A program made the position numbers and the translations under genes. From Antedon bifida (lineage: Eukaryota > Echinodermata > Crinoidea > Comatulida > Antedonidae), in NCBI GenBank assembly GCA_963402885.1, contig OY727095.1, positions 15,629,001 to 15,693,000 on the forward strand: DNA of 64,000 nucleotides, read 5' to 3'. The notes under the pieces were generated by a model. It ran no database searches and had not been told where the DNA came from. It saw only the letters and a program-made list of their open reading frames with translations. Numbering within the stretch: the first letter of the stretch is position 1; every line of letters starts with the position of its first letter. Positions 3,464-55,745 of this stretch are shown one piece after another.

Positions 3464-3722
3464 TTTGATTGATTGATTGATTTTATTTGATATTCATACA
3501 TAAAAGTTAAAATATACAATGTATAAAAAGAATATCTGGATAACCCATTAAGTCGACAAAAAAGTAAACTTATTTCCAATGGGGTCCAATCCGTAATGAC
3601 TGAAAAGTGAGTGGTTGGGCCTAGTACAATTATCGTTAAGTATGACTCAGTAAAAATGAAAAAACAAGAAAATACATACAAGACAAGAAAACATCAAAAA
3701 AACAATATTAAAAATAGCTTAA

Positions 3723-32849: not shown

Positions 32850-33727
32850 GACAACTGAGTTACAGCTTCAATATGTTGACAACTGTCTACTACAGCATTG
32901 AGTACACAAATGACAACTGAGTTACAGCTTCAATATGTTGACAACTGTCTACTACAGCATTGAGTACACAATTGACAACTGAGTTACAGCTTCAATATGT
33001 TTACAACTGTCTACTACAGCATTGAGTACACAAATGACAACTGAGTTACAGCTTCAATATGTTGACAACTGTCTACTACAGCATTGAGTACACAATTGAC
33101 AACTGAGTTACAGCTTCAATATGTTGACAACTGTCTACTACAGCATTGAGTACACAATTGACAACGGAGTTACAGCTTCAATATGTTGACAACTGTCTAC
33201 TACAGCATTGAGTACACAATTGACAATTGAGTTACAGCTTCAATATGTTGACAACTGTCTACTACAGCATTGAGTACACAATTGACAACTGAGTTACAGC
33301 TTCAATATGTTGACAACTGTCTACTACAGCATTGTGTACACAATTGACAACTGAGTTACAGCTTCAATATGTTGACAACTGTCTACTACAGCATTGAGTA
33401 CACAATTGACAACTGAGTTACAGCTTCAATATGTTGACAACTGTCTACTACAGCATTGAGTACACAATTGACAACTGAGTTACAGCTTCAATATGTTGAC
33501 AACTGTCTACTACAGCATTGAGTAGACAATTGACAACTGAGTTACAGCTTCAATATGTTTACAACTGTCTACTACAGCATTGAGTACACAATTGACAACT
33601 GAGTTACAGCTTCAATATGTTGACAATTGTCTACTACAGCATTGTGTACACAATTGACAACTGAGTTACAGCTTCAATATGTTGACAACTGTCTACTACA
33701 GCATTGAGTACACAATTGACAACTAAG

Positions 33728-34072
33728 GGCCCGTTTACGGACAGCAAGTATCCGGATAACTTGTCATCTTTTGGGGTCATTAATCATGCCTTAACGACCC
33801 TTAATGGCTTTTTTGAGTACTACCACCTGGGTTATCCGGACCAACCTCAGCCCGGCAAATTTGGAGGGTTGGCTTGTCCTCAGGGGAGTTGAAGGCGACC
33901 TTGCTGGATTAAACAATGTATTTTATGAGATAATCATGCAAATCAGGCTGAAAATAAGGCCATGAGTAGCCGGATAACTAGAAGTCTGTAAACGGTAGGG
34001 AGAATTTTGATTTAGCCTTGTCAGGAGAGACCTCTGGCATATCCAGATACTTTAAATGTTCATAAACACAAC
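33728..34072. mobile_element. 345-bp non-autonomous element in the satellite, copy 1
   Basis: The element starts GGCCCGTTTACGGACAG and ends AACATTTAAA-type sequence closing ATAAACACAAC; the ends are imperfect inverted repeats sharing the AGTATCCGGATA / AGTATCTGGATA core. CTAAG occurs on both sides (33723-33727, 34073-34077), fitting a 5-bp duplication inside a satellite unit. A second internal inverted piece (GTTATCCGG / CCGGATAAC) is also present. The 62-codon frame it holds is not a gene. Confidence 0.65.
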
Positions 34073-34153
34073 CTAAGTTACAGCTTCAATATGTTGACAA
34101 CTGTCTACTACGGCATTGAGTACACAATTGACAACTGAGTTACAGCTTCAATG

Positions 34154-34498
34154 GGCCCGTTTACGAACAGCAAGTATCCGGATAACTTGTCATCTTTTGG
34201 GGTCATTAATCATGCCATAATGACCCTTAATGGCTTTTTTGAGTACTACCACCTGGGTTATCCGGACCAACATCAGCCCGGCAAATTTGGAGGGTTGGCT
34301 TGTCCTCAGGGGAGTTGAAGGCGACCTTGCTGGATTAAACAATGTATTTTATGAGATAATCATGCAAATCAGGCTGAAAATAAGGCCATGAGTAGCCGGA
34401 TAACTAGAAGTCTGTAAACGGTAGGGAGAATGTTGATTTAGCCTTGTCAGGAAAGACCTCTGGCATATCCAGATACTTTAAATGTTCATAAACACAAC
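34154..34498. mobile_element. 345-bp non-autonomous element in the satellite, copy 2
   Basis: The copy differs from copy 1 at only a handful of positions. It interrupts the satellite unit at another point (after GCTTCAATG, resuming at AAAATGTTGAC), so it looks like a separate insertion rather than a duplicate of copy 1. The flanking duplication is imperfect. Confidence 0.6.
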
Positions 34499-35142
34499 CA
34501 AAATGTTGACAACTGTCTACTACAGCATTGAGTACACAATTGACAACTGAGTTACAGCTTCAATATGTTGACAACTGTCTACTACAGCATTGAGTACACA
34601 ATTGACAACTGAGTTACAGCTTCAATATGTTTACAACTGTCTACTACAGCATTGAGTACACAATTGACAACTGAGTTACAGCTTCAATATGTTGACAACT
34701 GTCTACTACAGCATTGAGTACACAATTGACAATTGAGTTACAGCTTCAATATGACAACTGTCTACTACAGCATTGAGTACACAATTGACAATTGAGTTAC
34801 AGCTTCAATATGACAACTGTCTACTACAGCATTGAGTACACAATTTACAACTGAGTTACAGCTTCAATATGTTGACAACTGTCTACTACAGCATTGAGTA
34901 CACAATTGACAACTGAGTTACAGCTTCAATATGTTGACAACTGTCTACTACAGCATTGAGTACACAATTGACAACTGAGTTACAGCTTCAATATGTTGAC
35001 AACTGTCTACTACAGCCTTGAGTACCCAATTGACAACTGAGTTACAGCTTCAATATGTTAACAACTGTCTACTACAGCATTGAGTAGACAATTGACAACT
35101 GAGTTACAGCTTCAATATGTTTACAACTGTCTACTACAGCAT

Positions 35143-35568: not shown

Positions 35569-35809
35569 CTATTGTTCTTCTTGGGAAATTTCTGAATAGC
35601 GTGCTCTCTGTTCGTCTGCTGTTGTGTATGTTGACTGAGTACGAGACTTGGTGACTTTCTTATGCACATACCAGATACAGCCACCACCAACAGTTACCAA
35701 CAATCCAATACCATTGCCAATTCTTGCTGTAAGCCATCATATATAATAATTAAGATGACAAAAGTTGCCAATAGAATAAACCAAATTGCAGTACCTATCC
35801 ACCAGTGAG
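35569..35809 (-). CDS. Tail form B: transmembrane tail exons
   Basis: A 15-nt exon 35795-35809 and the terminal exon 35569-35726 fit the phase of exon 37011-37049 only if the CaaX exons are skipped. They read AHWWIARIGNGIGLLVTVGG and on to GGCIWYVHKKVTKSRTQSTY, ending SEISQEEQ before a TAG at 35569-35571. The hydrophobic Gly-rich stretch of about 22 residues followed by HKKVTKSR looks like a membrane span and stop-transfer sequence. The 68-base intron between the two (GTACTG ... TTACAG) is itself open: if retained, it gives a more hydrophobic span (WFILLATFVILIIIY) and a short end DGLQQELAMVLDCW. Confidence 0.6.
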
Positions 35810-38800
35810 CTGTAATCAAAGTGAAAATGTTTCATAAATCCTCATCTTTTTAGAAATATTCTTGAGAGCTTTCTATATTTTTTTTTTATTAAAGTTCTGT
35901 AATTTACATAATTTAATCTACAAAAAAAAGCATTTTATAGGAAAACAAAGGATTTCTTACATATTGAAACTACAGTAGTCTTTTAATATAAAGACAGTGC
36001 ATGACTTTAGAAACAAATTCAATTTTTTAAACTGTTATATACACAAGTTAAATACTATACCTTATAACAACTTGCAACCACGTTTGCTACGTTTCTTTTG
36101 CTTTTGCCTAGAATTAAAAATGTACAATTAAATAATTAAAATTCTAATCAAGTATTAACATTAAAATTGTTGTTTCTTTCAACCTGATTGCTTTCAAATG
36201 ATCGTAGTTGAACTTTTAACGATGATGCAGTTCAAGGTGATGATATTGGAAACTTAACAGATTATCTCTGAAAATGTTATTTATAATATTGTATCATAGT
36301 AGGGATGAATTATTTCTACAATTGTTCGTACGTGTCGGCGATGACCGGAGTAATTTCTTTTATCTTTTTTATTTTGTTTTTTGTAATTGTATTTTTATAA
36401 ATTTTATGTGGCAAAATAAATGAAATGAAAAAGTGCCCATTTATTAACAAAATATATTTTAATTTTATCAAATAACAATACATAGGTGGAAAATACTTAC
36501 CCGCCATGATGCGTACCTGAAATAACAACAAAACAAGCTCATTAAGTAAAAGATATAGTGAGAAATACTTAAACACCCTAACCCCAAAGTGTAAACACAG
36601 TTAAACCTAAAACATTTAATAGTATGTTAAAATGTGGATCAAAGCCTTGATTAAATAAAAAATATATAGTTTGAATGACATGTACAGTATACAGTATTAT
36701 TTAGTTGTTTTAATCAGAAGGCACAGCTATTTCATTTAATTTAATTCATTAAAAATGTTATTATTTGGCAGGGAAACTCTGCTGGCCTTATAAACTGTAC
36801 ATACAAATAATACTATATAATGATATCAAATTTACAAGGAATGATACAACATTTATCTATTTAAAAAACAACTACTATACTAATTTCAAATTGCTGATTA
36901 ATACACTAATACACATAAGTTTTCATCAAGTCATTTAAAAAAAGATAAATAAAACAAGTATCTATACACATGTTTGTGTTCTTAAAAAAAAAGTTACAGA
37001 TGGATCATACCTGTTTGGTTGATGAGCGATTCATCTTCATCTTCACCATCTGTAGAAAAAAAAAGTTTTTGGAATGTTGTAAAATCATTACATTACATTT
37101 CTAATTAGTACAACTAGCTACAAGATGTTATTTTAAGTATGCTAAACGATAACTACTGACTATTAAAAATCAATATAAACTGTTAAACAACAGTGAAATA
37201 TTTTTCGAAAGTTCAAATATCTAAGCTGATATTGTATGAACCACACAGTGGAACGAATGTTTAAGCAACAAACAGGATAAATGTATAATGTGTTGTTTCA
37301 CAGGTCTACGTGAAAAAGAAATGAATGCAATAGCTTTGAAGAAAGTCGAAGAAAAAATTAAACTCAAGTTATTTTAAGGTTGCCTGATAAATACAGATTT
37401 TAACTGCATAAATAACTACATTCACTTAACATTGAAAGGTAATAAAGCATTGTTCTAATGCCTTGATGGTTACCTTGATATTCACCTGCACTTGACGGCA
37501 CAACTGCATCAGAAGACACACCTGAAGATGCGCCTGCACCAGAAGATGCGCCTGCATCAGAAGACACACCTGCACCAGAAGATGCGCCTGCATCAGAAGA
37601 CACACCTGCACTAGAAGACACACCTGTACTGGAAGGGACACCTGCACCAGAAGACACACCTGCACCAGAAGACACACCTGCATCAGAAGACACACCTGCA
37701 CCAGAAGACACACCTGCACCAGAAGACCCAGATGTGCCAGTACCAAAATACATGCCTGTACCAGAAGACATATACTTATTTAGAATACATATAATTATGT
37801 AGAATATGACTACTGGATGACTTCTGGATTTTTTAATGGATGATGATTAAAAGAAGTGTTTCAGTAAGCTAATTGTCATTGAAACAAACTATTAATTAGG
37901 AAATGTAAATAACCTGGGATAGGCAGAAGTCTCTATATTTTTACAACATTTATGCTGCCATATAATCTAAACTTAAGTTTATAATGGTTTAAATTGGCAC
38001 GGAGGTGGTGATGGGTACGCTGTCAACCTGTGGCTTTCTTATACAACTTAATGATCCTCTCGCAATAGTAAAGGTTTGAACCAGCGTCAGAGTAGATACT
38101 AATTTGACCCTCAAATGGTATGCTGAGCCTTATAGGAATTAAGAGGAATTCAAAATTCAAAATGCAGATTATTATTATGTTTCAAATGTTTGGGTCAATA
38201 TGATTTATAGGGATAATATCATGGAAAACAAACATACTTTTCATTTCAGCTCATTTTCCATTGGACTCATTGAGCATATTATTGTTATTTTACTAACTTG
38301 TCATTCAATTCAGCCTAATTGACATTTAACGGAATGTTGGTTGATATCCTTAATCAACTATAATAGCAGACAGGCAGGGACATCATAATAATTTGAATCT
38401 GCCTAAAATGTTTAATGTTTAAAGTACTCTTACTTGATTGTAGTGTACTACAGTATGTACTGAATATGTTTTAACAATAAACCATGATGATGAACTAAAA
38501 CAAATAAACCAACCAACCATCAATGAAAATCTTCCTAGCTTTTGTCATTCCATTTTGTTCTAAAACTTTAAGAAACTCAACCAACTTTGTGAAATCCTTA
38601 TCAATGATCCCTCTATGTTCAAAGTCCATAATCATACTCCAGCTGTCTTGATATGTCTTTACCAATATATTGTTAAATAACCTGGCAAGTGTTGATACTT
38701 CATCCTGTTTAAGTTCTACTCCCAGTTGATAAACCTTCTGTCTGAAAGGTGTCAACATTGATACTACGTGTTTCTTAATATCTTCTGGAGGTTGATTCTC

Positions 38801-41800
38801 AACGTTTGACTGGAAGCCAAATTGCTTGGTTACTGTTATTGTGTCATATAGAATAGTAAGGTTTGATGGACTCAAACTTCCTGAGGCTCTTAAATCCTGT
38901 AGCAGATACCAAACACTTCTAGCTCTTTCCACCTCTACATTCGATTTTGAAAGATGGTCTTTGTATAAAACTTTCAATATTTTGAGATATCCAAGTTCAT
39001 CAAACCATGCTGCTGTATCAGTTAACAGTTGCCGGAAATCATCCTCTGAGATTTCTGCAAAGGAAAATGAGTATGATATCATCAATATAATTACACACAT
39101 TCTCTTTTTATCCAAATATTATTTATAGTAAATTTAACATACCTTGATTTGAACCGGATGTCCCAACATCATCCGCTGTAACAAATGAAATGATAAAACA
39201 ATAATTCATTCAATACTATATGCTAGGATGCAAGCTATGACAGAGCATGTTATCACAAGTGTAACTGTTGTTATATAGGCAACAATTTACTTTTGTGAAC
39301 ACCACATTTAGCTGATATTGTCACTGCCGAGTGACATTATTGCTACAGAACATAACAAAAGGAAATGATTTGGGGATTGTCTCAATCATATTAAAGAGTG
39401 TGAGTACGGACTTAGAAGTTCTGGTTTTCGAAGTAATGAAATTTTAGACTTCAACTGAATATTATCCAATAGTAACATTGATCATTTGTACTTCATTTAG
39501 TGGGGTGTGATTACATCATGTGATTCTACTAGTACTACTACTGGTAAGAGGAATTAAGATATCACAGCTAATAGCAGCATGTTGTAACAATGTATAGATT
39601 ATCAATAATGATTCTGATAGTACTACTACTGGTAAGAGGAATGAAGATATCACAGCTAATAGCAGCATGTTGTAACAATGTATAGATTATCAATAATGAT
39701 TCTGATAGTACTACTACTGGTAAGAGGAATGAAGATATCACAGCTAATAGCAGCATGTTGTAACAATGTATAGATTATCAATAATGATTCTGATAGTAAC
39801 TACTGGTACAAGGAATAAAGATATAGATTTCTTCAAATTTATAAAATGTTTTTTTCTAATTTTAAGATTTATATAATTTTAATATAATTATTTTGTTCAA
39901 TCTTACAAAAATTAACATAACAAAAATATAACATTTAATTATATTGTCTACACAATTACCGTATATTATTTTGTTATCATCAAATAACTGACTGCGTTCC
40001 TGACAAAATCTTCACTTTTTTTTCTTTTTTTTGTAAAATAAATAAGTGAAATTATATTTAATTCGTCACTATGACGAATTATAGGTTATATGCATTGATT
40101 TAAATAAAGATAATTGATTTTTAAAAGATATATTGATTGATTGATCTTTCATTATTTATAAAATATGAAAATAGGATCTTGCTAATGCAAATACAATAGC
40201 TGGTATCACAATCCGATCAAATATCCCTCTGCGTATAATGTCATAGACCACATTTGTTACATAATAATAAATATATAAGTTACTTTTTATCTAGATTTCA
40301 TTATAAATCATGTGTATAATCTATACACTAAGAATTAAAATTGAACAAACAATACAGATAATTAAAAAAAAATCTTATTTCGTTTCATTCCCAAGGTGAA
40401 ACTCGATCTCGGTACCTTGAATGCCATAGACACGAGCATAGGCCATATACAACTGACTAAAAGTTGTAGAAAGATTCCTCCCTCCGTGTATTTGCTATGC
40501 AGGTGCAGATAGATTATTACATACCGCAATGAATTATAATTTTTTATCTTTAAAAATGTAAAACAATTATGCACTGTCAAAGTATATACTTTTAACTTTA
40601 ATATATGAACATTTTAAGGAAGAAAGTTAATGTTTAGTTTGTTATTTCGGCCCAAGAAAATGTCAGTTTGTTTGATTGTCAAAATTAATTTTTTTTAATT
40701 AAATATGCAATTAATGATGACTTAATTTCATAATAAATCATAAATACACTATAAGAAAATGAAATGCAAAATAGGTATTCCCGAGCATTGGGACGACATA
40801 TATTAATTATAAAACTTGGCATATTTTCACCATTTTGGTAACTTACACGTGCGTAGCCTGTCCTTTTTTACGTGCTTGTATTACACAATTTCGAGTTGAA
40901 TAAAATATGATGAAATTATTAAATAAAGGCTTGTGAAACGTGCACAAATCTGCACACTCATAGCAATTTTTTAAACACTTAAAATTGCCTGAAACATACT
41001 CTAATTTCATCCAAAATCAATTTTGACAATTTTGAAAATTTTAAGCGCTATATGCGCTACGCACGTAATTGTATTGCCATATGATGAAATATGAGTTAGG
41101 TGAAATGCTGCTGTTAGCTGTGATATCTTCATTCCTCTTACTAGTAGTAGTACTATCTCATATTTAGGTTTTTCCCCACATTTTACCTGTTAATTGCTTA
41201 CATAAATTTTATTCACCTCCGCCAAGGAGGTATATGTAGTCGATCGTGTGTGTCTGTTTGTTTTTTAGTAGGATTACTCAAAAAGTAATTACAAGATCTT
41301 TCCCAAAATGAAAATATAGATAGATATGTGGTCAAGGACCACTCCATTAAATATTGGAGGCAATCTGGACCACGGTCCCAATTCTGGACAACTTTTTAGA
41401 ATTATTTTCAGACCTGCTAGTGTTAAAAGATAGGACAGAATTTTCAAAAAGCCGGCTAGCAGTCTTAAAGTAATGAGTAAACTGAAATTGCATTTTCTCG
41501 AGAACTACTTGTCCAAAAAACTTCATTTTTGTACAAGAGGCAACAGTTATAATATGTGATTTGTAATTTTAAAACATAATTAGATTTATGTACAAGTTTG
41601 TTGATGCGAGTAGTTTTTAAAAACGTATTTCTTTTCAAATTCACCCGTTTGTTTTTGGCGTTGCTGTTCTATTGTTAGTCAACTATTGTTAGTTGAAAGG
41701 CTGATTACATAACCATTACACCAAATTCACATACACATGGCTGTAGTAGTAAATATATCAGTGAAATAAAATCGAACTTGTCGGTCTCTGTTATTACTCT

Positions 41801-44800
41801 TACCTCCAAATAGCCGCTTGTAACGTTTAACATCCATACTCTTATAAGTGCCAGTTTTGGAGCATGGCAACTTCTCGTCCTGAAAATCACCAAGACTTTG
41901 AATGTGTTTCTTTTCTGATGTATCACTACATACATCACAAAGTATGCATCTCTCATATTGAATCCCTCTTCTACCACCATCTTTAGAAGGTTCAAATGAC
42001 TTCTGGATCGTTAACAAAACCTAACGATATAAATTGAATTGGTTAATTTCCAAAAACATGCAATTTAACACATAAACAATGTAGCACACATTTTTAAAAT
42101 GTTCACTAAACATTTACAATACAAAATAGTTATAAAGGAAAAAGTAAAACAATAATAATTGAAATAATTCCTAAAGTTAAGGTGAATTATCACTACTATC
42201 CACATTTCACATAGTTGGTCACAAATGTAACAAAATCTTTACCATAAGATCTGTCACCATTACAATAAACCTCATTATTTTTATAAAGTTTAATTGCAGG
42301 CATTGAGGCCAAGATTCATGACCATATACAAATTAAAAATAATAAAAATTCAAAGTGTGTTATTGATTGGCAACTACATTTCAGTGAAAATCACTTATAA
42401 ACTAGTTTTTAATAACTGTACTTTAAGTTGTTTGTATTTTAAAATTTATATAATATTAAGATTATATCATTAATTTGTTAAAGATGTATTGTTTTTATAA
42501 ATCAGTTATCAATAATCAATTTAATATTCAATTAATAATGTATATCAATAAAAATTAAAAATTATATTACACATCAAGTAAACTGCACAAACATGATTTT
42601 AAATATTTAAGTTATTTTAAACTATGTCATAATTACAAAAAACCAAATCAACAAAAATATCTATAAAAAATAATATAGTTTTTAAAACTGATATTACTCT
42701 AGTAGCTAGATCAACTTTCGTATGCACTTTGAGGTCCAGAAAATATGACTTCAGAAATTGGTTAAGGATGGTCAAACAATCATTATTAGCTTGGTTACAC
42801 ATTTTGAAAATGTGGCAAAAGGTCAGGGTGAAAGGTTATAAAACTAAACACCAATAGGTCCTTAAATCTTGACAACCACTGGTCACAGCGAGGTAATTTT
42901 GGTCTTAAATTGATCAGAAGGTATACATTTATATTCAGTCTAATGGGACATTTTAGTCAAAAATGACCGGAAATGCCATTTCTGACCTTTGACCCACACT
43001 CCAGGGCATGTATGTATCTCCGTAACTACTGGTCGTAGACACTTGAATTTGGTCTTAAATTGTTCGAAATAAACATTTTGTTATTTTTTGCACATTTTTT
43101 AAAATGTTGCAAAAGGTCAAAGGGTCAAGGGTTATATGAACAAATACAAATAGATACTTGTATCTCGGCAACCACTCGTCGTAGCAAGTCAATTTTAGTC
43201 TCAAAATGTTCAGAAGGCATGCATTCATATTCAATCTAATGGGACATTTTAGCCAAAAATGATCAGAAATGCCATTTCTGACCTTTGACCCACATATCAT
43301 GGCATCTTCATATCTCTGTAAGTACTGGTAGTAGAAACTTAAATTTAGTATCAAATTGTTAGAAATACACATATTTACATTCATTCTAACAGAAAATTTG
43401 GATAAAAGATGATCAGAAATACTATTAATTACTAATGTTTTAAATGAAAAACATATCTCTACCCAACTTATCATTAGACAGTAATGTTATGCAATAATTG
43501 ATGCTTAATGATTTCATTATAGGAATTAAAACAAATCCTTTACTGTTTGTAATGATTGTACTTTTGCTTATAATAATGCTAGAAAGTATTGTTGACCCCC
43601 GAGAACGTTAACACATTTTGATAGAAACGTCGAGCTCAACAGTTAAGAATGCTAGAAGTAACTTACTGTAGTTACCCAAATAAAAGCCCCGGGCATTTAT
43701 TTATTCAGGGAAGGCGTTTATTTTGTTTGGGTGTAATAATGGTAACATGTATAATCAAATAAATACACCCCAGATATAACAAAAAAAAAAAAAATTAATA
43801 TAATAAGAATAATAACTGGATTAAACCTCATTCTATCCTGGTGGAGGTAAAATCATGTAATAAAAGGTATCAGAGACAACTATAATAGACCAATTCATTG
43901 TCATTATTCCGTAACACTGTTGCATAATATTTTTGAGTGTCACCGCCAAAACTTATACATATACACGTCTGTTTCCAGTGTAGATAATAAAACAATATAT
44001 ATTTCTGGAGATTTATTATCAATACCACTAGAAACTTTGACATGTTTTAGGTACTGAATGCATTGACAATAAAAGCATCAGAAGTTATCATGATAAAATC
44101 ATACTACAACACTGTACTAGTGTCGTGCACAAGGGTGTTTTCAGGAAAGCTGGACATATTGTACAATAGTAATGAAACTATGTATTGGCATTTAAAAATA
44201 TGCAAAAGATTGTTGTCAAATTGTAGTTACAAACAAACAGATGATAGAATGAAGATCCATTATGAGTGCAATCATGTCAGGATAATGATGTGTCATTGTT
44301 TTATATACTGGCACCTGGAGGAGAAGATCCATTTAATGGAATCTATCACTTTTATTCTAAAAGACAGAAACATTTCGATAAAAAGCATAAAGAGGAAAAC
44401 GAATCATGTAAAGTACCTTTTATCAGTTGAGAAACGAAATATAATTATTAAAATTAGAGTATTTATTTGAATAAACACCCGCTTTGAATAAAAGCCTCCC
44501 TCAAATAAACGCCATCATTCCCTCCAATAGAACATCATGTGGAATAAACGCCCCGCCACATGCATTTACACAATAATTGTATCACGTCAACACATTTCAT
44601 TAACAACCATAATCTACAATGTACCAAGCATTTGACATAATTTTATCACTTTTTGATATTAATTGTGCTGTATTTTTTTACATCTAGGTGGTATTTATTT
44701 GATTATACATGTTACCATATTATACCCCAAATAAAGATGCCTCCTTTCCCCCTAAAAACCCTTTTGAACAATAAATGCCTGGGGCGTTTAATCGGATACA

Positions 44801-47800
44801 TATGGCAAGTTACTTCTAGCATTTTGAAAAGAACTGTTGAGCTTAACGTTTCTATCAAAATGTCCTCGGGGACAGCAATAACTAGTACTTGAAATTAAAA
44901 CAATTTAAAGTATCAGTTATTGCATAAAATTACTGTCTAAGGATAAGTTGTGTAGATATGTTTTTTGTTTGAAACATTAATAATAGTATTTCTGTTCATC
45001 TTTTAACCACATTTTCTATTACAATGAATGTAAATATGTATATTTCGAACAATTTGATACCAAATTTAAGTTTCAACGACCAGTACTTACAGAAACATGA
45101 AGATGCCCTGGTATGTGGGTCAAAGGTCAGAAATGGCATTTATGATCATTTTTGACTAAAATGCCCCATTAGATGGAATATAAATGCATGCCTTCTGAAC
45201 ATGTTGAGACCAAAATTGATTGCTGCGACCAGTGGTTGCCGAGATACAAGTACCTTTTTTTATTTGTTCATATAACCCTTGACCTTGACCCTTTGAGCTT
45301 TTGTAACCTTTTTCAAAATGTGTAACAAATAACAAAATATACATTTCGAACGATTTAAAACCAAATTCAAGTGTCTACGACCAGTAGTTACGGAGACACA
45401 TACATGCCCTGGGTTGTGGGTCAATGGTCAGAAATGGCATTTTCGGTCATTTTTTACTAAAATGTCCCATTAGACTGAATATAAATGTATACCTTCAGAT
45501 TAATTTAAGACCAAAATTACCTCGCTGTGACCAGTGGTTGTTAAGATTTAAGGACATATTGATGTTTGGTCATATGACTTTTACCCTGACCTTTTGACCT
45601 TTCGCCACATTTTCAAAATGTGTAACCAAGCCAAAAATGATTGTTTGACCACCCTAAACCAATTTCTGAAGTCAAATTCTCTGGACCTCAAAGTGCATAC
45701 GAAAGTTGATCTAGCTACTAGAGTATATATGAAATAACATACTTCTTTACATGCTTTAGAAGAGGGTTCTTCATTACTTGCTTCATTAGGAACATTTGTT
45801 CTTTTAATAGTCACCTGAAAAAAGAAGAAAAGTAATGTTTTGATATCTGAATTTGAGTTTATGTTTAGATTAAATGACTTTTCAGGTAATATATACATTT
45901 ACTATATGTATAACTTTATTCACAATCTCAGATAATACAAAGTACATGCAAAATTAATTGAAGTTGTGAATGGGGTTAAGCTGTAAGCTAATGCTTTAGA
46001 CGCAAAGCCCCTTATATATATTATATATATTATTCACAACAAATTATATGATACAGTACCTTTAACAAGAAATTTCTTTCATCCTCTATAGTCACAAGTT
46101 TGACAAGAGATAAGGTCAGATGATGATCTTGGTCGAAGTAAAGTTCAGCATGATTATATGACAGTATTGGGTCATCACCTTTCTTTTGAAATTTGTTGAG
46201 GAAATCAATAATCATATATGGAAACAATACATCTGGCAGATATCCCTTAAAGTCGTAATAGATACTGATAGCTGGAAATTCATCAGGCACTGCTTTCACT
46301 TCAGTTGATGTCTTAAAAGCAAGGCGTAATGGCACAAAATATGATTGTTTTACAACAGATCTCTGAAATTGTAAAATACCATTTAGATATCTTTTAATAA
46401 GAAAATTAAGATCATTTCCTGTACATGTTAAAAACATCTTTCAGCACCAAAATATTTGAAATTTTTTTGTATCATACCAAAAATCATTTTTTATACATAA
46501 TTTGACTACTTGCAAAACATGTAGAAAAGATTTAACAAAACCTACTGTAGATGTACTTTGCCTATCTCGGCTACATGTTGTCTTCCTCTTACAAATGAAA
46601 CCCAATTGGATCATCAGTGCTACAAGAAACTCAAAATTCTTTCCTTCGTCAACTTTACGCTCTTTCCATAATTCTCGCAACAAGTCTTCCTCCAGTATGC
46701 CATTTTCAAGCTTACTAAAGGCATCAATATACATGGCCGGCTAAAAAAACACACACACATTTATTATAATTTTCTTATCGAACAGCAGATACAATTACAT
46801 ATGTATATACAATATACCACTCAAATTTAAACTACTGTATAAGGTGGCTGTCAGATATTGCTTTTGATACTACAACATGTGCCTATTATTTCCCCAAGGA
46901 ACACTGAATTAAAATTTTTATATGAACCTACTTACTGGATTTTCTGGTGGAATGACTGTTACAAAAGAAGTGACAATTTCAACCAGCTTCATTGGATCTA
47001 ACACTGCTTTATCTTTCAATAATTTGTTGTCAGGCATGTAAACAATTTCACCAAGATCATACAGGAAGTTAAGAAGGGTTGATTGTTGGTTTTCATCTGC
47101 AATACCATTGTCACTTGCCAGCTCTTTGAGCTAAAGAAAAAAAATGAAATCATAGGTACTGTAGGTATATGTCATTTATAACATTATTTCTGTCATTTAC
47201 AGAAGTGTTCCGCAAACTTTTTATTTAGTGGCCTAAATCCTGTTCCCAATACCAAGCTGCGGCCTAACTACCCAGCTTGAATGTTAGAAACGTAATATAA
47301 AAGAATTTGCCACCTTTAGCCTCACCGTGGTTGGGGATGAGGTAAGAACATTTTTGGAATATGGACCTCTAGGTCCCTTGAATTGTTTTTTAATTTTGTT
47401 TTTGGAGGATAAAAATTGCACCGATGATGATCCACAAAAAAATTATAAATTCAGCGCAGCCCGGTTGGATTTCTCCTTTATAGCAGACACTAGACATGTC
47501 AATGTGTTGCGTTACATTACATCGTGGTCGAAACTTCAACCACACATATAAATAAAAGAGCCCGCCACCTCAGTCCCACATGGTTGGGGGTGAGATAAGA
47601 AAATTAGGAATATGGACCATAGCTCCTTGGAAATTGCGCTGACATTTTTTTTAGGGTAAAATTGTGCTGACGACACCGAAAAAAATCAGAGCAGCATCAG
47701 GGTTTTCCCTTTATAATGCACACAGCACATATCACTGTGTCATGTCACAGTTCACACAAGATTCCCGATTGAAACTTTAGTCGCACATATCAATTGCATT

Positions 47801-50800
47801 TGTTGGTATGTTACACATTTTTGGAATATCAAACCACACCCTCATAACCTGCGTAACATCAAATTTACACTGTTTGTTGTAAACTGCGCATTGTTAAAAT
47901 AAAGGCTCTTACAACACAGCCCATAGTTTGTGAAACATTGCTTTATAACATGAAATGTTTTGAGGTACAATTGCCAATATAAAAAAGTTGTGCGCAAAAT
48001 ACTGTCACTTTTTGTCATTTACTTGATACAATTTACTGCATAATGTTGAATCTGAAGGAAAACGTCACTCTCACAGTGTCATGGGGGATATATACAGAAA
48101 TTGTTCTCACTGAATGGCAACATAGCAATGAATATTTCATGTAATATTACTAGGTCGTTGAATGGTCTGGCTCACATTTACTAATATTAATTGTTTTTTA
48201 ATAGTGGGAAAAATATTTTGTTTATGCTTTTTTAGATACTATTAATTACTACTGAAAAGTATATGTTTGTCTTGTGAACAGGATTGCCACCTTTAAGAAT
48301 AAATAGTGAATGAATTCGCTTATGGTTATCTTTGGCAATTTTCCTAAATATATAAAAAAAATATTTAAAAAATAAAAAAACAAAACATTAAATTAAATTT
48401 ACCTCTTCAACAGGACACAAAGAAAAGTGTTTTTCTCCCCTTAGATTATGTATGCCACATCGAAAACGCATCCACTTCAAAGGAACAGGCCTTTCTAAAT
48501 CTGTCATAAACTCATCAATAACCTCTTTGAGATCACTAAAGCTCTTATCTGTTGTTTCTTTACTGTTCTCGATGGCAAAATAATGGTTATTATACACATG
48601 TACTTTCAGTTTTTCTCCAAGTGCACCTCGAAGCTCTTTAAATACCTTTTTTGCCTAATAATAAAAAATTTATATTCATATCATAACATGGGTCAATTAC
48701 TGTAATTTATTCTAATTAATATTCAAAAACTTTTTATAATAGACTCGCGACTACTACTTACTTTTATAGTAATCGCAGGTTAGACTTAAGTAATCAAATT
48801 ACTTGATACACTACTTTAGGACTAAGTTTCTTTACATTTGCTTATAGATTGTTCTCAGTAGTTGAGTATTTACCTCATCATTTTGTTCTTCTTCAGTCCT
48901 GCCAAGCTTCCCCTTGTGTGTACCCACAATAAGGATAGTTGGTTTGTGAACTCCCTTTGCTTTGTTTTTTCCCACAATACGACTATGAGAATAAACTGAC
49001 AGGATGTAAGATAATATGAACTGGAGGTTGGTCCAATGATGTTGATGCTTTTTCTGAAAAAAAAAAACAAACACAAAAACAAAACAAAATTACTTTTTTG
49101 ATTTAAAATAAAGTAAATGCTTTTTTTTTTTATCAAGAAGACTTGTTCCAGCACAACAACTACAATACCTTACAATACTTACGCCATTCGAATCAATGAC
49201 GATAGCACGATCTTTAAGGTTCACACTGAGATCAAACACTACGATGTATAGTGCCTCTGATGTTACGAAGATCTGGAAAAAATAATGTGCTTGTTATTCA
49301 AATATTTTATTAATATTCTTAAAGGCCTATGAACAAGTACCATTATTCTGTAGTGGTCCCTAATATAAATAAAGACTATTATATACAAATTCTTTGATAA
49401 ACTATTTTAATACATTGACTATTGATACTCTTTTTATCAAAGCATTTCTCTAGTACAAATTCATATAACACTGTGGCTAAAATCAGGTATGATTGAAAAC
49501 AGAAGGAAAGTGTTAATAAAAATACTCATAGAAAATTTGTAATATCAACATTTCATAATAAGCACTAACCATTGGATTACAATTACTGAATGGGGAAAAA
49601 GGCAAACTATACCTTGGCCATACAATTGTTATTATTACATTACATTACAAATTTGATATAGCGCTCTTAGAATGAAACCAATTATGTTATCTTTTTAACT
49701 GGCTGACATGGAGTTTATTAAGAAATGTGTAGAAAGTATTTAAACAATAAAATATCAACTTACAAGGCAATAACATATTTTGTAACTTACGCGATGTATA
49801 CCATGGTATATCATTTGTCCCCCATGATCCCAGATGTTGAATGTTTCTTCCAAAGTCGTCTCCTTATTTTCCTCAACTTTCTTGATTACATCTTTATCTA
49901 ACTGCTGTTCTGTATCAATTGGAATAGCTTTAGTAGCTGTATCAGTACCTGTAGTGGAAACAAGCTTTTTTGGTTATCAAAACATATGTAACAAGAACGT
50001 AATATAAAAATATGTAAATGATTTCATTTTTAATGACAAATTTAAGTCCCAGTATATTAATATATATATTATGAGTATTGTTTTAGTTGTCCTCTTTGTT
50101 GTAATTTTCATTATCATCATCATCATTGCTAAAGTCACCACCCACTACCACATAGATGCAGGCTTCACCATTATTAATATCTAGCACATCATCATTATCA
50201 TTATTATTTTCATCCTTGTTTTTCATTTTTAATGTCATCATTATAACTTTAGTTTTCACTGTCTAGAAATGTATGACTGTCAATCATAATTGTTACACAG
50301 ATAATATTTCGTCTCCAAGTTATAGTTAATTATAGTTGTCATTATCATAGTAGAAAATTATGTCACCATAATTGTTACACAGATAGGTTGCCTCCAAATC
50401 TGAGCACATAATTTTAATAATGTTATAGTTATTTAGTTACTTTAAATTAGAAAATCTTATAATATTATCTTAATTATTTCAAATAACTATGAAAAATTGC
50501 CAACTCATAATATAAGACTTATTTATTAGTGTTTTTACTACAAAATGTAATAGATAAGAATTTACGGGAAAGTTACATACCATCATTTTTGTAATCATCA
50601 TTGTTGGCATCAATATTGTAGTTAACAATACCATCATCATCTTCTGTAGATGGTTTCATGTTAACCTGACACATACAAAAAAAAAATAACCCAAAAAACA
50701 ATAAATGTTATTCATCAAAAATTGAATACTGTCTACCTTTAATAGAAATAAAAAGTAATATTTATTCTCAAAACAATAATTAGAAATTTAAAACATTAAA

Positions 50801-53800
50801 ATAGCTGCTCATAATGTCTCATTGCATTCTGTAAGTGACTGGTTTGCAATAGTAGGAATGTGCTGTAGGTACTTATATTTTATTTATTTTTTGTTTTTAT
50901 TACACTATTACTGACATACGCTTACAGTTTTCCTTGCTCTCAGTTTGTCAGTGACCATTTTTGTATACTGATTTGAAGGATTACCTGTAGAGAAAAAAAA
51001 GACAGTGTGTACATATTATTTTAGCAGATACGTTAATACGTAAATATACTTTAGACTGTCAAACTTATTGATTAATTAATGTAAAATTAATATACATCAT
51101 CAAACACTGTAACATAGCTTGCGTGCTAAGAGATCATAACAATTGTATTAGTATAATGTATGTTAAAATAAGACCGTTCACACCATACTACGGTTGTATA
51201 CATTTTTAAATTCCATTCTACATCTCCAATTCATTGTGGGCCTGTTTGTGTCAATGATAATGAGATTAATGATAAATAATAAATAATGTTACATAGCCAG
51301 TTATGATAGGAAGAGTAATATGCTAATTTGTATTCATGTTTACCACTATCAGCATCATCCTCTGTCCATGTTGTGCTTGCTGTTCTTATCACCGCTATGC
51401 CATCTGTAACTACATGCTTTTCCTCAAATCTGGCAAAAATATTTGAAACCAACTATGAACTTCAGTCATTTTAAGTACAGGTACTGTAAAACATGCACTT
51501 TTCTCCTTTTACTTCAAAATCATTTTAATATATTCATTAATTATAATAATAATAATAATATTTATTTGGTCACCAATGTAAAAATAACCAGGAATGAGAA
51601 TAGGCTAAAGCCCAAACAGATTCTGTACTCACTCCATACAATACAAACAGTTAAGATAAAACCAAATACAAGAAAAATACAAATAAACTATACATAACAT
51701 GAAATATAGTGTTTTGTTAGAGCAGCCTTAAATATTGAAATTGTTTGTGAATCTTTTATGTCATTTGGTATTTGCTCCCATAGTCTAGGAAAAGAAACAA
51801 ATACAGAATTATAAAAAATATTGCCTTTCGAATTCCAACGTAAAAGCCTACCCGGACATCTTTCACTAGTTTTAATATACTCATTGAAAGAATGGGGACA
51901 GTAACCTTTCAACACCTTAAATCCTAATGAAAGTCTATGTAATTTAAACAATCAATAGATAATAATTCAAGCACTTTCAACCTATGAAAATAAGATGTGT
52001 CCCAGGAACCTTCCTTTCTAAACATTATTATCCTTGTTGCTTTCCTTTGTATACTTTCTATTCTATTAATATATGATTTCTCAAATGGTGCCCACATTGA
52101 ACAACAGTAGGTAACCACTGGAAGTAATAGAGCTTTGTATAAGTTCAACATAGCTAACCAGGACATATTTTTACTACATTTTGAAATGAAATCAAGCAAT
52201 CTGCTTGCTTTACAACATATAACTTGTGTATGACAAGACAACGAACTATTTACATACACACCTAGAAATTTGAATTCTGTAACTTTAGGAATATTGTCTG
52301 ATTCTATGGTATTTATCCCGGTTAACTATCTCTTTACATCTTGTAACATGCATTACGGCGCATTTGACAGGATTTAAGGGAAGTTTGTTTACATTTGCCC
52401 ATTTAGCAATTAAATCTAAATCCTTTTGAAGCAATTTACAATCATTATTGTTATAAATAAGATGTGATAATGTGTGATCATCAGCAAATTGAAAAAGTGA
52501 AGAAGAAATATTATTTACAATATCACTTACGTAAATCAAAAATAAAAGAGGGCCCAAAACTGACCCTTGTGGTACCCCTGAAGTAACATTTACCCACTCT
52601 GACCTTCTCCTCTGTAAATAACCATAACCTTTTGGCGTCTATTTGAAAGAAAATCTGTAATCCATGCAGGCCCGTAGTCAGGGGGGGTTTTTTTGGTTCG
52701 GGCGAACCCGCCTTTACAGTGAATTGTATAATTTGGAATATTAATTCATTTAAAAATGCTAAATAAAGTCAGATGTTAAAACCACAATTTCCAAAAATTC
52801 ATTTCTATTTATCCACTATAAATTTACAAAAGTGTTGTTTTAAACCACACTCCAAATAAAACAAAGAAAATAATGATAGGACATTTGCAGAAAGAAGCAA
52901 ACCGGTGTTACCGGTATAACACGGTTCAAATTTCGGAACGTCTATAAATTACTACGGAAATTCGGCCTAATATTTACGAACGTAGGGAAATGAAGATAAA
53001 TAGGGTACTACACGCATCGGAAATACAGAACTACAGTACAGGACAGAATTATTGCAAAAATCACAACGCATTCAACACGTTGTCGTTGCGTTTTGTTTGC
53101 GTTGCGTTGAACAGCTTTCAACATATAGTTGTTTATTCAACGAAAGTCATTATCAGCATGTCAAGTAAACAATGAGTTATTTCAACGCTAGCTGCTGCTA
53201 CACTAGACTGGCCGATTGCACGCCTGAACGATCAGTAACAACAACAGGCAAAATACCGGCAGTCACTACCAGATATTTTAATATAAATAAAATATATATG
53301 AAGCTTAAATATATTTTTAAGTATTGAACGGACAGTTACCAAATAAAACACACAGTGATATTTTCCAGTGTTTAGTAAAGGAAAACATCGAATAATAAGG
53401 TCGATGCTAAGCCGAACAGTTAACACTGTACTGTAGGCCTTCCGGGGGAAAACACGATCTCACGTCGTAAAATCAAACAACGTGGTAATTACTGACATCA
53501 ACACACGGGGCCGCCACCCCGGTTTCCTCAAGAAAAAAACCATGTGTGTTATGACGTATTACGCACAATTATGATTTCCACCAATGCCACAGTTATTAAG
53601 TTTCTTAATTAATCTTTTATGAGACACCTTATCAAATGCAGACAAAAATTCAAGAAAAATAATATCAATATTTTTACAGCCTTTAAGTTCTGAGCTCTGT
53701 GCCCATGAATGAAAAACCTTTGAAAGTAAAAGTTCAGTACTATACATTTGTCTAAACCCAAACTGATTTTCTGAAAGGATATTATTATATTCTAGATATT

Positions 53801-55745
53801 CCCTTAAATGATAGCAAAGCAATTTCTCAATAATCTTACAAATTATGGGAGTTAAAGACACTGGACGATAGCTTTTCATTTCGTCTTTGGGTTTTCCATT
53901 TCTTTTGAAAATAGGTACAACATTTGCATCCTTCAATTGTTTTGGTAAAATACCTTTTTGTACAGTTAAATTAAAGAATGTACATAAAACATTAGCCAAT
54001 TGTGCCTTACATGACTTTAAGAATATTGGAAGCAAATTATACATTTAGGAAGTCAAGTTATCCAACAATTCGTATGATTTTTTTTCCTAGAATATAAGAT
54101 TAAAATTAAATTCTATAATCTATAGAAAATTTGATGGTGTTATGATTAGGTAGTAACTGATTTATATATTTCTAAAAGTTTTTATTTAACTATTGTTAGA
54201 TCTATTACTGCAATATTTAGAAAGTAGTAGTTTATCAAAAACCAATCAATAAAAGTTGGCTGGTTTGCAATTCTTAGTTTGCTCACAATTATTTTGTAAT
54301 GTCAATTTCACTGTCCTATTACTACTTACTCTTTTCCAAGTAAGGCATTAATGAGGCATGTTTTACCCACTCCTTCCTGTCCAATTACTTTAAGCATTCC
54401 AAGATTGACTAGAACTGATCCATCTTTCAAGGCTTCATTGTATGCGTCTTGAAAATCACGAGCAGCAATATTGGGATATTGGAATGTTGGAAAATTATCT
54501 AAAAATATAATAAGATTTTAAAATAGCTTTGAGTAAATTAAGTTCAACAATCAAGCAAAAATGAACAATAGCATGCAAAATAAATCTACAAACTATATAA
54601 ATACTACATTATTATATAATAAATAAAATTACATTATGAGATTAAAAAAAAAGAATTTAAAATGTTAACTATAGACTCCAATCAACAAGAAAAAAGTATT
54701 AATTAAAATGCTATTGTAATGAATACAGTAATAGTAACATTGTATACAAATAATAACACAAAAACTGGACAAATAAGTATAGAGGAACACAAAGCATTTC
54801 AGACCCAAAAAATTGGTAAGTATACCATGGACAAGAGATGAGAATACTGTAAAAGTGTGTCATAGTAATAAATATTGAGTGCTGAAAAAAGCTGTTTTCT
54901 CCTCTTATTTTAATTATAATATCGAGTTTAATTTAAAAAAGTAGAAATTAAACCATTTCATGATCTATACATATACTACACAGACAAACTTATATCAGTT
55001 ATTTAGTACATAATACTGAGAATTAACTTAACCTTCTAACTTGTTAGCAGCAGCAACAGTCATCTTATTTTCCTTTAAATGTTCGATAAATGATTGCAAT
55101 TTATCTTCCCTTAGGATGCCTCTCTGTTCAAGATCTAGTATCACAGTCCACTGGTTGGCGCATTGTTTTATTATTAAATTAAATACTTACCTAAAATATT
55201 TCTTGCTCTCATTCCAATACATGCTGCAAACGTATTTAATTTTGATGGTTCATCGTCAAGCTGTAATCCACTTTCCAAGTAAAACACTACGTCCCACATG
55301 TTTTGAAAACCAAATCTTTGCAGTCTATAATAAGTAATGACATCTTGTAACTCCTCTTGTCCTACTTCGTTCAATGCCGTAAACAATCGCTTCCGGTAAG
55401 AGGATAACTTATCACCAGTACCTTTGACGTTGTTATCTTTCATATACTGCTTTACCAGATCTACAGCAAGCTGCAAACCTGATAATTCAGCAACCTCAAA
55501 AAGGATGGTGACGTCATTAGGTTTGATTTTACCGTTGTCATGGAGTATATTGAACAGATCAGTTGCTATGAAATCAGTATGTGTGAGGTCTCCTCTAGGA
55601 ATAACATCAAATAAGCAACATCTTAGCCAAAGGTATCTTTCCCCATCATAGTGTTTGCCAAGATCATATTTGAGGTCGTTGAACTTTGTTTGTAAGTCTG
55701 GCATTTCCCTAGATGTTGGTTTTGTCCGAGAATCTTCAGATGATT
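35569..55745 (-). CDS. DED-like / Roc-like GTPase / COR / DED-like protein, about 21 exons, alternative tails
   Basis: I assembled this gene from splice borders and phases. Exons in order: 55191-55745, (55033-55134 optional), 54330-54498, 51344-51429, 50926-50984, 50581-50665, 49791-49948, 49183-49272, 48874-49053, 48403-48654, 46936-47130, 46546-46740, 46060-46362, 45743-45814, 41804-42020, 39143-39175, 38518-39054, 37474-37755, 37011-37049, then either 36501-36516 plus 36062-36107, or 35795-35809 plus 35569-35726. Every junction stays in frame; most have GTAAGT- or GTATGT-like donors, the weakest being GTTGGT after 38518. The protein has about 1,190 residues. First-exon phase implies an upstream exon I could not find; otherwise the ATG at 55702-55704 would serve. 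Roc-COR proteins (ROCO family) are GTP-binding scaffolds; DED links suggest cell-death or immune signalling. Mobile elements fill three introns. No transcript was available, so all exons are predictions. Confidence 0.75.
36062..37049 (-). CDS. Tail form A: acidic exon, 16-nt micro-exon, polybasic CaaX end
   Basis: Exon 37011-37049 (GEDEDESLINQT), micro-exon 36501-36516 and exon 36062-36107 join in phase to read GTHHGGQKQKKRSKRGCKLL and a TAA stop. The last four residues CKLL form a CaaX box; a final Leu favours geranylgeranylation, and the KQKKRSKR stretch just before is the basic patch seen in Rho and Rap GTPases (RhoB ends CKVL). This would tether the protein to the inner face of membranes. 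All borders are canonical (TTTCAG/GTAAGT, TTCTAG). Confidence 0.65.
37474..37755 (-). CDS. Ser/Gly/Ala-rich repeat linker exon
   Basis: The exon encodes 94 residues, mostly SSGAGV / SSDAGV / SSGAGA repeats of six residues, from an 18-bp tandem repeat in the DNA (TCTTCTGGTGCAGGTGTG and variants). Both borders are phase 1, so copies can be gained or lost without breaking the frame. It probably works as a flexible, possibly O-glycosylated or phosphorylated spacer between the DED pair and the membrane-anchoring tail. Confidence 0.75.
38518..39175 (-). CDS. Second tandem DED-like exon (C-terminal pair)
   Basis: The 11-residue exon 39143-39175 (DDVGTSGSNQ) leads to exon 38518-39054, 179 residues holding two death-fold units: FRQLLTDTAAWFDELGYLKI ... 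LLQDLRASGSLSPSNLTILY and FRQKVYQLGVEL ... SWSMIMDFEHRGIIDKD ... LEQNGMTKARK. The layout copies that of the N-terminal exon, so the protein carries two DED-like pairs flanking the GTPase-COR core. The exon could start with an ATG-led hydrophobic frame (MCVIILMISYSFSF) if transcription began in the intron, but the acceptor at 39055-39056 is good and that frame is probably intron. The donor GTTGGT is weak. Confidence 0.75.
39530..41157. mobile_element. Inverted-repeat element in an intron, left end triplicated
   Basis: An end sequence GTACTACTACTGGTAAGAGG, then AATGAAGATATCACAGC and TAATAGCAGCATG, occurs at 39531 and is inverted at 41104-41157. The left copy is part of an 88-bp tandem repeat (starts 39543, 39631, 39719). 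The interior is AT-rich without coding frames. A non-autonomous DNA element is the simplest reading. Confidence 0.65.
41214..41690. repeat. Dispersed-repeat-like block with CCTCCGCCAAGGAGG palindrome
   Basis: The block begins CACCTCCGCCAAGGAGGT, a 5-bp-armed palindrome, followed by GTGTGTCTGTTTG. I recall similar starts in dispersed repeats of other animals but cannot name the family. It is intronic, with no coding frame. Confidence 0.35.
41804..45814 (-). CDS. Linker and cysteine-rich exons after COR
   Basis: Exon 45743-45814 encodes a 24-residue polar linker (IKRTNVPNEASNEEPSSKAC). Exon 41804-42020 encodes 72 residues with CILCDVCSDTS and a later LPCSKTGTY, a CxxCxxC cluster that could bind metal. 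The intron between them is 3.7 kb and almost filled by a foldback element whose edge is only about 11 bases from the donor at 45742-45737. I do not recognise the Cys-rich part as a named domain. Confidence 0.65.
42695..45725. mobile_element. Foldback element with about 1-kb inverted arms, intronic
   Basis: The left arm (42695 to about 43770) and right arm (about 44690 to 45725) are inverted copies, diverged but alignable along their length; shared landmarks are CTAGTAGCTAGATCAAC, TGACCTTTGACCCAC, AATGCCATTTCTGACC and GTTCTCGGGG-type pieces. TAT lies next to both outer ends and may be the target duplication. The ~0.9-kb centre has a 135-codon plus-strand frame (44063-44470) with no known domain and short ATAAACGCC repeats. 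Arms this long could form a very stable hairpin in the pre-mRNA. Confidence 0.8.
46060..47130 (-). CDS. COR domain exons
   Basis: Three phase-0 exons (46936-47130, 46546-46740, 46060-46362; 65, 65 and 101 codons) follow the GTPase directly. Recognisable COR features are LLNFLYDLGEIVYMPDN, AVLDPMKLVEIVTSFV, then a winged-helix-like part (LEEDLLRELWKER ... FEFLVALMIQLGFI), and YFVPLRLAF ... YYDFKGYLPDVLFPYMI, the hallmark of the COR C-terminal half. In ROCO proteins COR dimerises and relays the nucleotide state. All exons being phase 0 and similar in size is notable. The donor of the middle exon is GTAGGT. Confidence 0.8.
47131..48402. other. Intron of the large gene, possible old element
   Basis: A plus-strand block from about 47201 (AGTGTTCCGCAAACTTTTTA) resembles the start of some hAT elements, and GTGGTTGGGG-type text occurs twice (47329, 47582). 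No right end was found. No exon is called here. Confidence 0.35.
48403..54498 (-). CDS. Roc-like GTPase domain, eight exons
   Basis: The P-loop (G1) is GQEGVGKT in exon 54330-54498. Switch I lies in 51344-51429 (VVTDGIAVIRTAST). G3 is WDHGGQ in 49791-49948, a proper DxxGQ. G4 in 48874-49053 is VGTHKGKLG: the Roc family usually has THxD, and the Asp that reads guanine is Gly here. G5-like FAIEN is in 48403-48654. Between switch I and G3 an acidic low-complexity insert of about 75 residues (TEDDADSG ... EDDDGIVNYN ... NNDDYKND) is encoded by three small exons, unusual for a compact GTPase. The missing Asp leaves nucleotide specificity open. The other exons are 50926-50984, 50581-50665 and 49183-49272. 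Confidence 0.8.
49273..50580. other. Introns of the large gene apart from exon 49791-49948
   Basis: AT-rich, with (ATC)n-type runs at about 50110-50230. Only the G3-motif exon is coding. Confidence 0.5.
51541..54050 (-). mobile_element. 5'-truncated LINE in an intron, interrupted by a second insertion
   Basis: The minus strand encodes RT from IFKRNGKPKDEMKSYRPVSL and EFLSAFDKVSH (53559-54044), then, past an insertion, [37 protein letters not shown] (the usual YADD is FADD here) and a C-terminal region ending FISCYV-like at 51688. At least two frame changes lie around 52300 and 52600. The 3' tail is (ATT)n at 51541-51560. The endonuclease is missing. It sits between the P-loop and switch I exons of the large gene, so it must be spliced out. 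Confidence 0.8.
52676..53560. mobile_element. Insertion of about 885 bp splitting the intronic LINE
   Basis: The LINE sequence is continuous in sense across the two edges (GGN before, AWITDFL after), so the piece between is inserted. It starts GGCCCGTAGTCAGGGGGGG, similar to CAGGGCCGTACGCAGAGGGGG at 55973, and has no coding frame. No matching inverted end or target duplication was found, so its class is open. Confidence 0.5.
55033..55745 (-). CDS. N-terminal tandem DED-like exon plus an adjacent half-DED cassette
   Basis: The exon 55191-55745 encodes two death-fold units: residues about 19-105 (FNDLKYDL, DGERYLWLR, DLFNILHDNG, ILFEVAELSG, DLVKQYM) and about 112-185 (LSSYRKRLFTALNEV ... FQNMWDVVFYLESG ... 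ARNIL). It matches the exon at 152-689 throughout. After its donor (GTAAGT), bases 55160-55033 encode QWTVILDLEQRGILRED ... ENKMTVAANKLE, which aligns to the second half of the same domain and better still to the downstream DED exon (SMIMDFEHRGIIDKD). The part 55033-55134 has an acceptor (ACTAG) and a donor (GTTAAG) and keeps phase if included, adding 34 residues. It may be an optional cassette or the remnant of a replaced exon. Confidence 0.7.

What the first reader, a model, noticed from the sequence alone, without database searches (positions are those of the whole stretch)
35569..37049. Two mutually exclusive membrane tails on a DED-Roc-COR protein: CaaX box or transmembrane span
From one 39-nt acidic exon, two 3' routes are both in phase. 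One uses a 16-nt micro-exon and ends in a polybasic CaaX motif (KRSKRGCKLL). The other skips it and ends in a hydrophobic span plus a basic cytosol-type tail. Two independent frame-compatible anchors make chance less likely. Switching between a prenyl anchor and a membrane span by splicing, on a death-domain GTPase, would be an unusual control of where a signalling complex forms. Prenylation of Rho and Rap by such tails is established; the rest is inference from the sequence.
Basis: partly seen in the sequence, partly recalled or inferred. Interest (0 to 1): 0.82.

Follow-up and report, generated by a model that had tools for sequence, protein, structure and literature searches.

The report
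Prenyl tail inserted before membrane tail
In one branch of a large animal family of death-effector GTPase genes, a small exon in front of the usual membrane-spanning tail has a stop codon that makes its end look like a lipid-attachment signal, so the protein may be tied to membranes in a new way; whether cells switch between the two tails is not shown.

Summary
The minus-strand gene has a phase-consistent 18-exon model (DED-like, Roc, COR-A, DED; 1169 codons, no stop). Acidic exon, 16-nt micro-exon and basic exon give ...QKQKKRSKRGCKLL*. Four other copies in this genome also end in CKLL* behind the same micro-exon. Such a polybasic CaaX end is rare: 1 of 8625 window stops, 0 of 176466 in randomised copies. 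The transmembrane tail is more widespread (21 places). Five other copies of the basic exon have no stop; in L054 it joins the transmembrane exon in frame. W to C, F to L and K to stop separate WKFLK from CKLL*. The transmembrane exon is broken in 3 of 5 CaaX copies and 0 of 9 others read, a biased sample. Best reading: a prenyl anchor evolved from a membrane-proximal exon and is displacing the older span. Skipping 63 nt would still give a hydrophobic tail; no RNA was available, and codon tests do not support the tail frames.

The parts
55191..55745 (-). DED-like exon (first exon of the model; start exon not found)
   Evidence: open, phase 1 to 1; DED only E 0.21, far below cut-off
48874..54498 (-). 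Roc exons (54498-54330, 51429-51344, 50984-50926, 50665-50581, 49948-49791, 49272-49183, 49053-48874)
   Evidence: phases consistent; Roc 3e-15, over cut-off
46060..48654 (-). COR exons (48654-48403, 47130-46936, 46740-46546, 46362-46060)
   Evidence: phases consistent; COR-A 9.8e-13, over cut-off
41804..45814 (-). linker exon 45814-45743 and cysteine-containing exon 42020-41804
   Evidence: the second gives 97 matches in the genome at E 0.01 or better; no Pfam match for the two together
38518..39175 (-). small exon 39175-39143 and DED exon 39054-38518
   Evidence: DED 2.3e-8, 34.6 bits against a cut-off of 35.9
37474..37755 (-). Ser/Gly-rich exon, 282 nt, made of an 18-nt tandem repeat
37011..37049 (-). 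acidic exon, 39 nt, phase 1 to 1, shared by both routes
   Evidence: 3 places in the genome including the window; counterpart joined to the transmembrane exon in L033
36501..36516 (-). micro-exon, 16 nt, phase 1 to 2
   Evidence: same exon and splice sites in 5 of 5 CaaX copies; donor percentile 99.9
36061..36107 (-). basic exon ending QKQKKRSKRGCKLL-stop (TAA 36064-36062), followed at once by a kept donor G|GTATAG
   Evidence: 5 places with CKLL*; no stop in L052-L055 and L059
35569..35809 (-). transmembrane exon; one exon with two hydrophobic spans in relatives, one base short here, so the direct reading stops at 35694 after one span
   Evidence: codes for the first hydrophobic span in relatives; lowest donor score of 21

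Best explanation
The window holds the 3' end of a member of an expanded DED/Roc/COR family. Shown from sequence: the more widespread tail of the family is one exon with two hydrophobic spans and a basic end. Inferred: it is a membrane hairpin with both ends in the cytosol. In one five-copy branch, this gene included, the basic exon directly upstream reads CKLL-stop after a polybasic stretch, and a conserved 16-nt micro-exon puts it in that frame. Inferred: the transcript that includes these exons stops there, the protein is geranylgeranylated on the Cys (X = Leu) and held at membranes by lipid plus basic charge, so a prenyl anchor has been gained and the older anchor is being lost. The two cassette exons sum to 63 nt, so skipping both would still give a hydrophobic-tailed isoform, in this copy with one span; that residual switch is possible but unproven.
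For: CKLL* in 5 of 5 copies found by DNA search, with the micro-exon in all five; indels between copies keep the frame (exon lengths 47, 35, 32, 38 are all 2 mod 3). Rarity of polybasic CaaX ends: 1 of 8625 against 0 of 176466. Five other copies lack the stop; W to C, F to L and K to stop against L052 and L055. In L054 a 25-nt exon, the basic exon and the transmembrane exon join in frame, entry phase assumed; in L033 acid joins the transmembrane exon in frame. The five CaaX copies group on the cassette/intron segment, support 0.978, unrooted. Transmembrane exon broken in 3 of 5 CaaX copies and 0 of 9 others.
Against: No RNA, no protein. dN/dS in the transmembrane frame is 0.75-2.63 over 21 pairs, and in the distal part another frame looks more constrained (pN/pS 0.54 against 1.41). 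The L052-L055 similarity score in that frame (121) lies inside the neutral range (median 105, 95% 136). In four non-CaaX copies codon positions favour another frame for the basic exon (pN/pS 0.34 in phase 0, 2.84 in phase 2). CKLL*GG identity is weak evidence, since flanks of L049-L051 are 81-96% identical. The transmembrane-exon tree does not recover the CaaX branch. The non-CaaX copies were found by searching with an intact tail protein, which favours intact ones.
Confidence: 0.5

Rival explanations
1. A maintained isoform switch: the same gene makes a prenylated form (cassette included) and a transmembrane form (cassette skipped), regulated by splicing, as the reader proposed but with the corrected exon.
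For: 16 + 47 = 63 nt keeps the frame; L033 uses acid to transmembrane directly; L031 and L049 keep two open spans together with CKLL*.
Against: Transmembrane exon broken or frame-shifted in 3 of 5 CaaX copies; no RNA.
Confidence: 0.25
2. The tails are not functional: the 3' end of this and neighbouring copies is decaying or noise, and the CaaX-like end is incidental.
For: dN/dS about 1 or more in the tail exon; lesions in several copies; a large duplicated family.
Against: Polybasic CaaX ends are rare by chance; indels in the basic exon keep the frame and the motif in three distinct sequences; 1169 upstream codons are open; under a neutral simulation of 79 substitutions the tail stays open with both spans in 0.03% of runs.
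Confidence: 0.2
3. One reading: acid exon, 15-nt exon 35809-35795, then 35726-35569, giving a single short span with a basic tail.
For: The junctions are GT-AG and the frame is open to 35569.
Against: The removed 68 nt code for the first hydrophobic span in relatives; lowest donor score of 21; hydropathy 1.44.
Confidence: 0.04

Closest known systems
Guanylate-binding proteins (GBP1/2/5)
   Different: Dynamin-like GTPases, not Roc/COR; no exon of a transmembrane tail is described as its source in the passages seen
OAS1 p46 / p42 and OAS1 paralogs
   Same: An innate immune protein whose prenylation depends on its 3' end; paralogs and bat lineages differ in having a CaaX box (PMC7612834, passages; splice isoforms from search listing)
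   Different: Not a GTPase; the alternative to the prenyl tail is not a membrane span, as far as the passages show
DED expansions and Roc/COR (AP-GTPase) proteins of invertebrates
   Same: DED-containing families expanded in oyster and amphioxus; Roc/COR as an apoptotic GTPase module (PMC8195603, passages); death domain with Roc/COR in sea anemones (PMC5094078, passages)
   Different: No CaaX tail is mentioned in the passages read
Lipid versus transmembrane anchors by splicing (NCAM; recalled, the paper PMC9456277 seen only as a listing)
   Same: One gene, two ways of membrane attachment chosen at the 3' end
   Different: GPI on the outer face, not a prenyl group on the inner face

Membership tests
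ROCO (Roc-COR) proteins | Roc GTPase domain | tested here: met
   Pfam Roc 3e-15, 56.9 bits against a cut-off of 27
ROCO (Roc-COR) proteins | COR domain behind Roc | tested here: met
   COR-A 9.8e-13, 48.7 bits against 35.3
DED proteins | death effector domain over the curated score | tested here: inconclusive
   39054-38518: 2.3e-8 but 34.6 bits against 35.9; the N-terminal exon only E 0.21
CaaX proteins | C-terminal Cys-x-aliphatic-x | tested here: met
   CKLL* in the window and four other places
CaaX proteins | Cys is prenylated | not testable with these tools
   needs labelling
Membrane-spanning tail proteins | hydrophobic span of about 19 residues or more near the end | tested here: met
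   Kyte-Doolittle maximum 2.82 in the window read-through, 2.63-3.22 in six relatives
Membrane-spanning tail proteins | second span, both ends in the cytosol | tested here: inconclusive
   second maximum 1.51-2.58 in six relatives; absent from the window read-through; topology not tested
Splice switch between prenyl and transmembrane tails | both junction sets seen in RNA | not testable with these tools
   no RNA held

The most novel reading that the evidence does not exclude
A DED/Roc/COR signalling GTPase that uses a two-exon, frame-neutral 63-nt cassette to choose between a prenyl/polybasic anchor and a membrane span, the prenyl option having been made from the membrane-proximal exon by a few point changes including a stop codon.
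Probability: 0.25. Interest if true: 0.75.

Novelty: new variant of a known kind. Interest (0 to 1): 0.5.

Why it matters
It would be a readable case of one membrane anchor replacing another in an expanding gene family of immune or cell-death type: copies with the older tail, with both, and with a broken older tail sit in one genome. If expressed as inferred, it shows how such proteins can be moved between membranes without touching their signalling domains. The tests are simple (RT-PCR, Cys-to-Ser tail, lipid label).

Tried and rejected

Considered and not settled: that the transmembrane frame is an illusion of another reading frame. Against the frame: dN/dS of about 1 or more, pN/pS 1.41 against 0.54 in the distal part, and a similarity score inside the neutral range. 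For it: best of three frames in 9 of 9 deep pairs, open in 9 of 9 non-CaaX copies read, and the simulation (substitutions only).

Not decided: frame of the basic exon in non-CaaX copies. Codon positions favour phase 0 (my hand count of 15 differences in two pairs is 8 third positions in phase 0 and 2 in phase 2). Exon length is 2 mod 3 in all ten copies, which fits phase 2 to 1 into the transmembrane exon, and L054 has a matching upstream 25-nt exon. L063 shows the donor end of a similar exon for L052. The short stretches fetched for L053 (L062) and L055 (L060) did not show one.

Led nowhere: a scan of the gene strand of 20 loci for CaaX ends with at least 4 of 12 basic residues found L031 and one weak case in L033. 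PDB sequence search with the DED exon: no match at E 1. Paper searches listed no prenyl-or-transmembrane tail choice on a DED or Roc/COR protein; the listings were cut (12 of 82 papers) and most papers were seen as listing only. One search also printed a faulty dN/dS table (offset error); one search replaces it. The species was not identified.

Rows dropped: L056 was fetched but left out of the trees and of the p-value (read later, open). L058 was left out of the dN/dS table. L001-L028 were used only as positions, apart from being present in the Python folder.

My confidence in the best explanation is 0.5, lowered from about 0.55 for these.

Full report
What the window holds. On the minus strand, 18 exons from 55745 to 37011 join with AG/GT borders and consistent phases into 1169 codons without a stop. 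I chose the exons by eye and by homology; the start exon was not found, so the 5' end is incomplete. Pfam finds Roc (3e-15) and COR-A (9.8e-13) over their cut-offs. The exon at 39054-38518 is a DED just below its cut-off (34.6 against 35.9 bits), and the first exon of the model is only DED-like (E 0.21). The family is large: the DED exon gives 150 matches, all that were scored of 477 candidates, the COR query 178 matches and the cysteine exon 97. By the tool's own statement such counts are lower bounds.

The CaaX route is in the sequence. DED_C, Ser and acid exons are multiples of three, so phase 1 is fixed up to the acidic exon. The 16-nt micro-exon moves it to phase 2 and the next exon reads QKQKKRSKRGCKLL-stop. 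Such an ending occurs at 1 of 8625 stops of the window and at 0 of 176466 in 20 first-order Markov copies. A genome search with 81 bases around the exon gave 5 places including the window. All five end in CKLL*, and all five keep the micro-exon and its splice sites. Before the Cys they read GTHHGGQKQKKRSKRG (window), GMHHGGRKKKKCGKCF (L049) and GMHHGGRKKKRR (L050), each with six K/R. At four of the five places, COR and cysteine exons lie about 10-16 kb upstream on the same strand (window, 16.73, 14.53 and 15.56 Mb); near the fifth, L049 at 17.04 Mb, none is listed, but the COR list is cut.

The transmembrane route is in the sequence but was drawn wrongly. The relatives read as one exon, 80 codons in L049 and L052-L054, with two hydrophobic spans. 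The five relatives aligned without a gap at the site have one G more than the window. Read directly from the acidic exon, the window's tail is AHWWIGTAIWFILLATFVILIIIYDGLQQELAMVLDCW*.

How the two tails are related. Ten copies of the basic exon were read. Five end in CKLL* (window, L031, L049, L050, L051). Five have no stop in that frame: L052, L053, L054, L055 and L059. L052 and L055 read TGG AAG TTT TTA AAA G|GT where the CaaX copies read TGC AAG TTG TTA TAA G|GT, so W to C, F to L and K to stop separate WKFLK from CKLL*. L053, L054 and L059 differ in more places. In L054 a 25-nt exon, the basic exon and the transmembrane exon join in frame (entry in phase 1 assumed) into DPEQPENQRLSRRGHSLEILKARWLIVTITWFLLLATF.... 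In L033 an acidic exon joins the transmembrane exon directly and in frame, and blastn found nothing better than E 0.44 to the basic or micro-exon between them. The window thus combines two arrangements seen in relatives, plus a stop. The donor kept right after the stop means that splicing on would leave the next exon as 3' UTR; the stop lies so close to that junction that decay of the message is not expected (rule recalled).

Direction of change. The transmembrane exon is spread over 21 places and includes distant copies; CKLL* was found at five, which group together on the cassette/intron segment (support 0.978, unrooted). The transmembrane-exon tree does not show that group. The window and L031 differ more in that exon (213 of 238 identical) than in the adjoining segments (97-100%), which suggests exchange between copies. 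The transmembrane exon is broken in 3 of 5 CaaX copies (window frameshift; L050 and L051 deletions and stop) and in 0 of 9 non-CaaX copies read (L033, L052-L059). L031 is open but ends a few codons early. One-sided p is 0.035 for 3/5 against 0/8, or 0.09 with L050 and L051 counted once (computed before L056 was read). The nine were found by searching with an intact tail protein, so the contrast is biased.

Selection, for and against. In the transmembrane frame dN/dS is 0.75-2.63 over 21 pairs, so this test shows no purifying selection. In the distal part a different frame has the lower pN/pS (0.54 against 1.41, six pairs of four copies). The L052-L055 protein score in the transmembrane frame, 121, lies inside the range of 2000 neutral runs with 79 changes (median 105, 95% 136). 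On the other side, that frame scores best of three in 9 of 9 deep pairs, it is open in all nine non-CaaX copies read, and a neutral simulation of 79 substitutions left it open in 9.4% and open with both spans in 0.03% of runs (at 16-22 changes the open fraction is 39-50%, so close pairs say little). A fair summary is that hydrophobicity may be kept while the letters are not. For the basic exon of four non-CaaX copies, codon positions lean to another frame (pN/pS 0.34 in phase 0, 2.84 in phase 2); this is unresolved and argues against the simplest account. CKLL*GG is identical in all five copies, but the flanks of L049-L051 are 81-96% identical to the window, so this alone is weak.

Most likely mechanism. 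Shown: anatomy, copy comparison, rarity. Inferred: inclusion of the micro-exon as the usual path (its donor score is high), prenylation by geranylgeranyltransferase I because X is Leu (recalled; CaaX principle and polybasic help in PMC10940682, passages), membrane binding by lipid plus basic charge, and loss of the older span. A maintained switch stays open because skipping 63 nt keeps the frame and L031 and L049 keep both spans.

Comparison with what is known. Gain of a CaaX motif after duplication is reported for GBPs (PMC10859415, passages), and presence or absence of CaaX among OAS1 paralogs and bat lineages (PMC7612834, passages). DED and Roc/COR proteins of invertebrates are described (PMC8195603 and PMC5094078, passages). 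Paper searches listed no prenyl-versus-transmembrane tail on such a protein; the library holds only part of the literature. I rate it a new variant of a known kind.

Noticed in passing
window 32837-35142: Two arrays of a 62-nt tandem repeat (14.3 and 10.5 copies, 96-97% matches) lie just downstream of the gene, with a 426-nt unit between them.
   Followed up: partly
window 37483-37727: The Ser/Gly-rich exon is an 18-nt coding minisatellite, 13.9 copies, so its length may vary between copies.
   Followed up: no
window 141-731: A DED-like frame at the left end resembles the first exon of this gene's model; a DED exon and COR exons lie just outside the window on the same strand (C8:15627876 and 15613557): probably a neighbouring gene of the same family.
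   Followed up: no
window 52285-54044: Reverse-transcriptase-like frames (judged by eye) sit in the intron between the first two Roc exons; similar ones at 2234-7256 and 19875-22685.
   Followed up: no
L056, L057 (C8:16401870-16402600, 14317160-14317860): In these copies the transmembrane exon runs on into YKSMDVKRYKRLFGG, the end of the cysteine exon, as if the two exons had been fused.
   Followed up: partly
L051 (C8:14517900-14519499): Where the acidic exon should lie there is an unrelated insert beginning ACGTATTGTCCCCC and ending GGGGGACAATACATCT, like a small inverted-repeat element; no acidic exon is seen in the alignment.
   Followed up: no
G000 contig C8, about 3.37-3.75 Mb and 14.0-17.2 Mb: COR exons of this family cluster densely in two stretches of one contig (list cut).
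   Followed up: no
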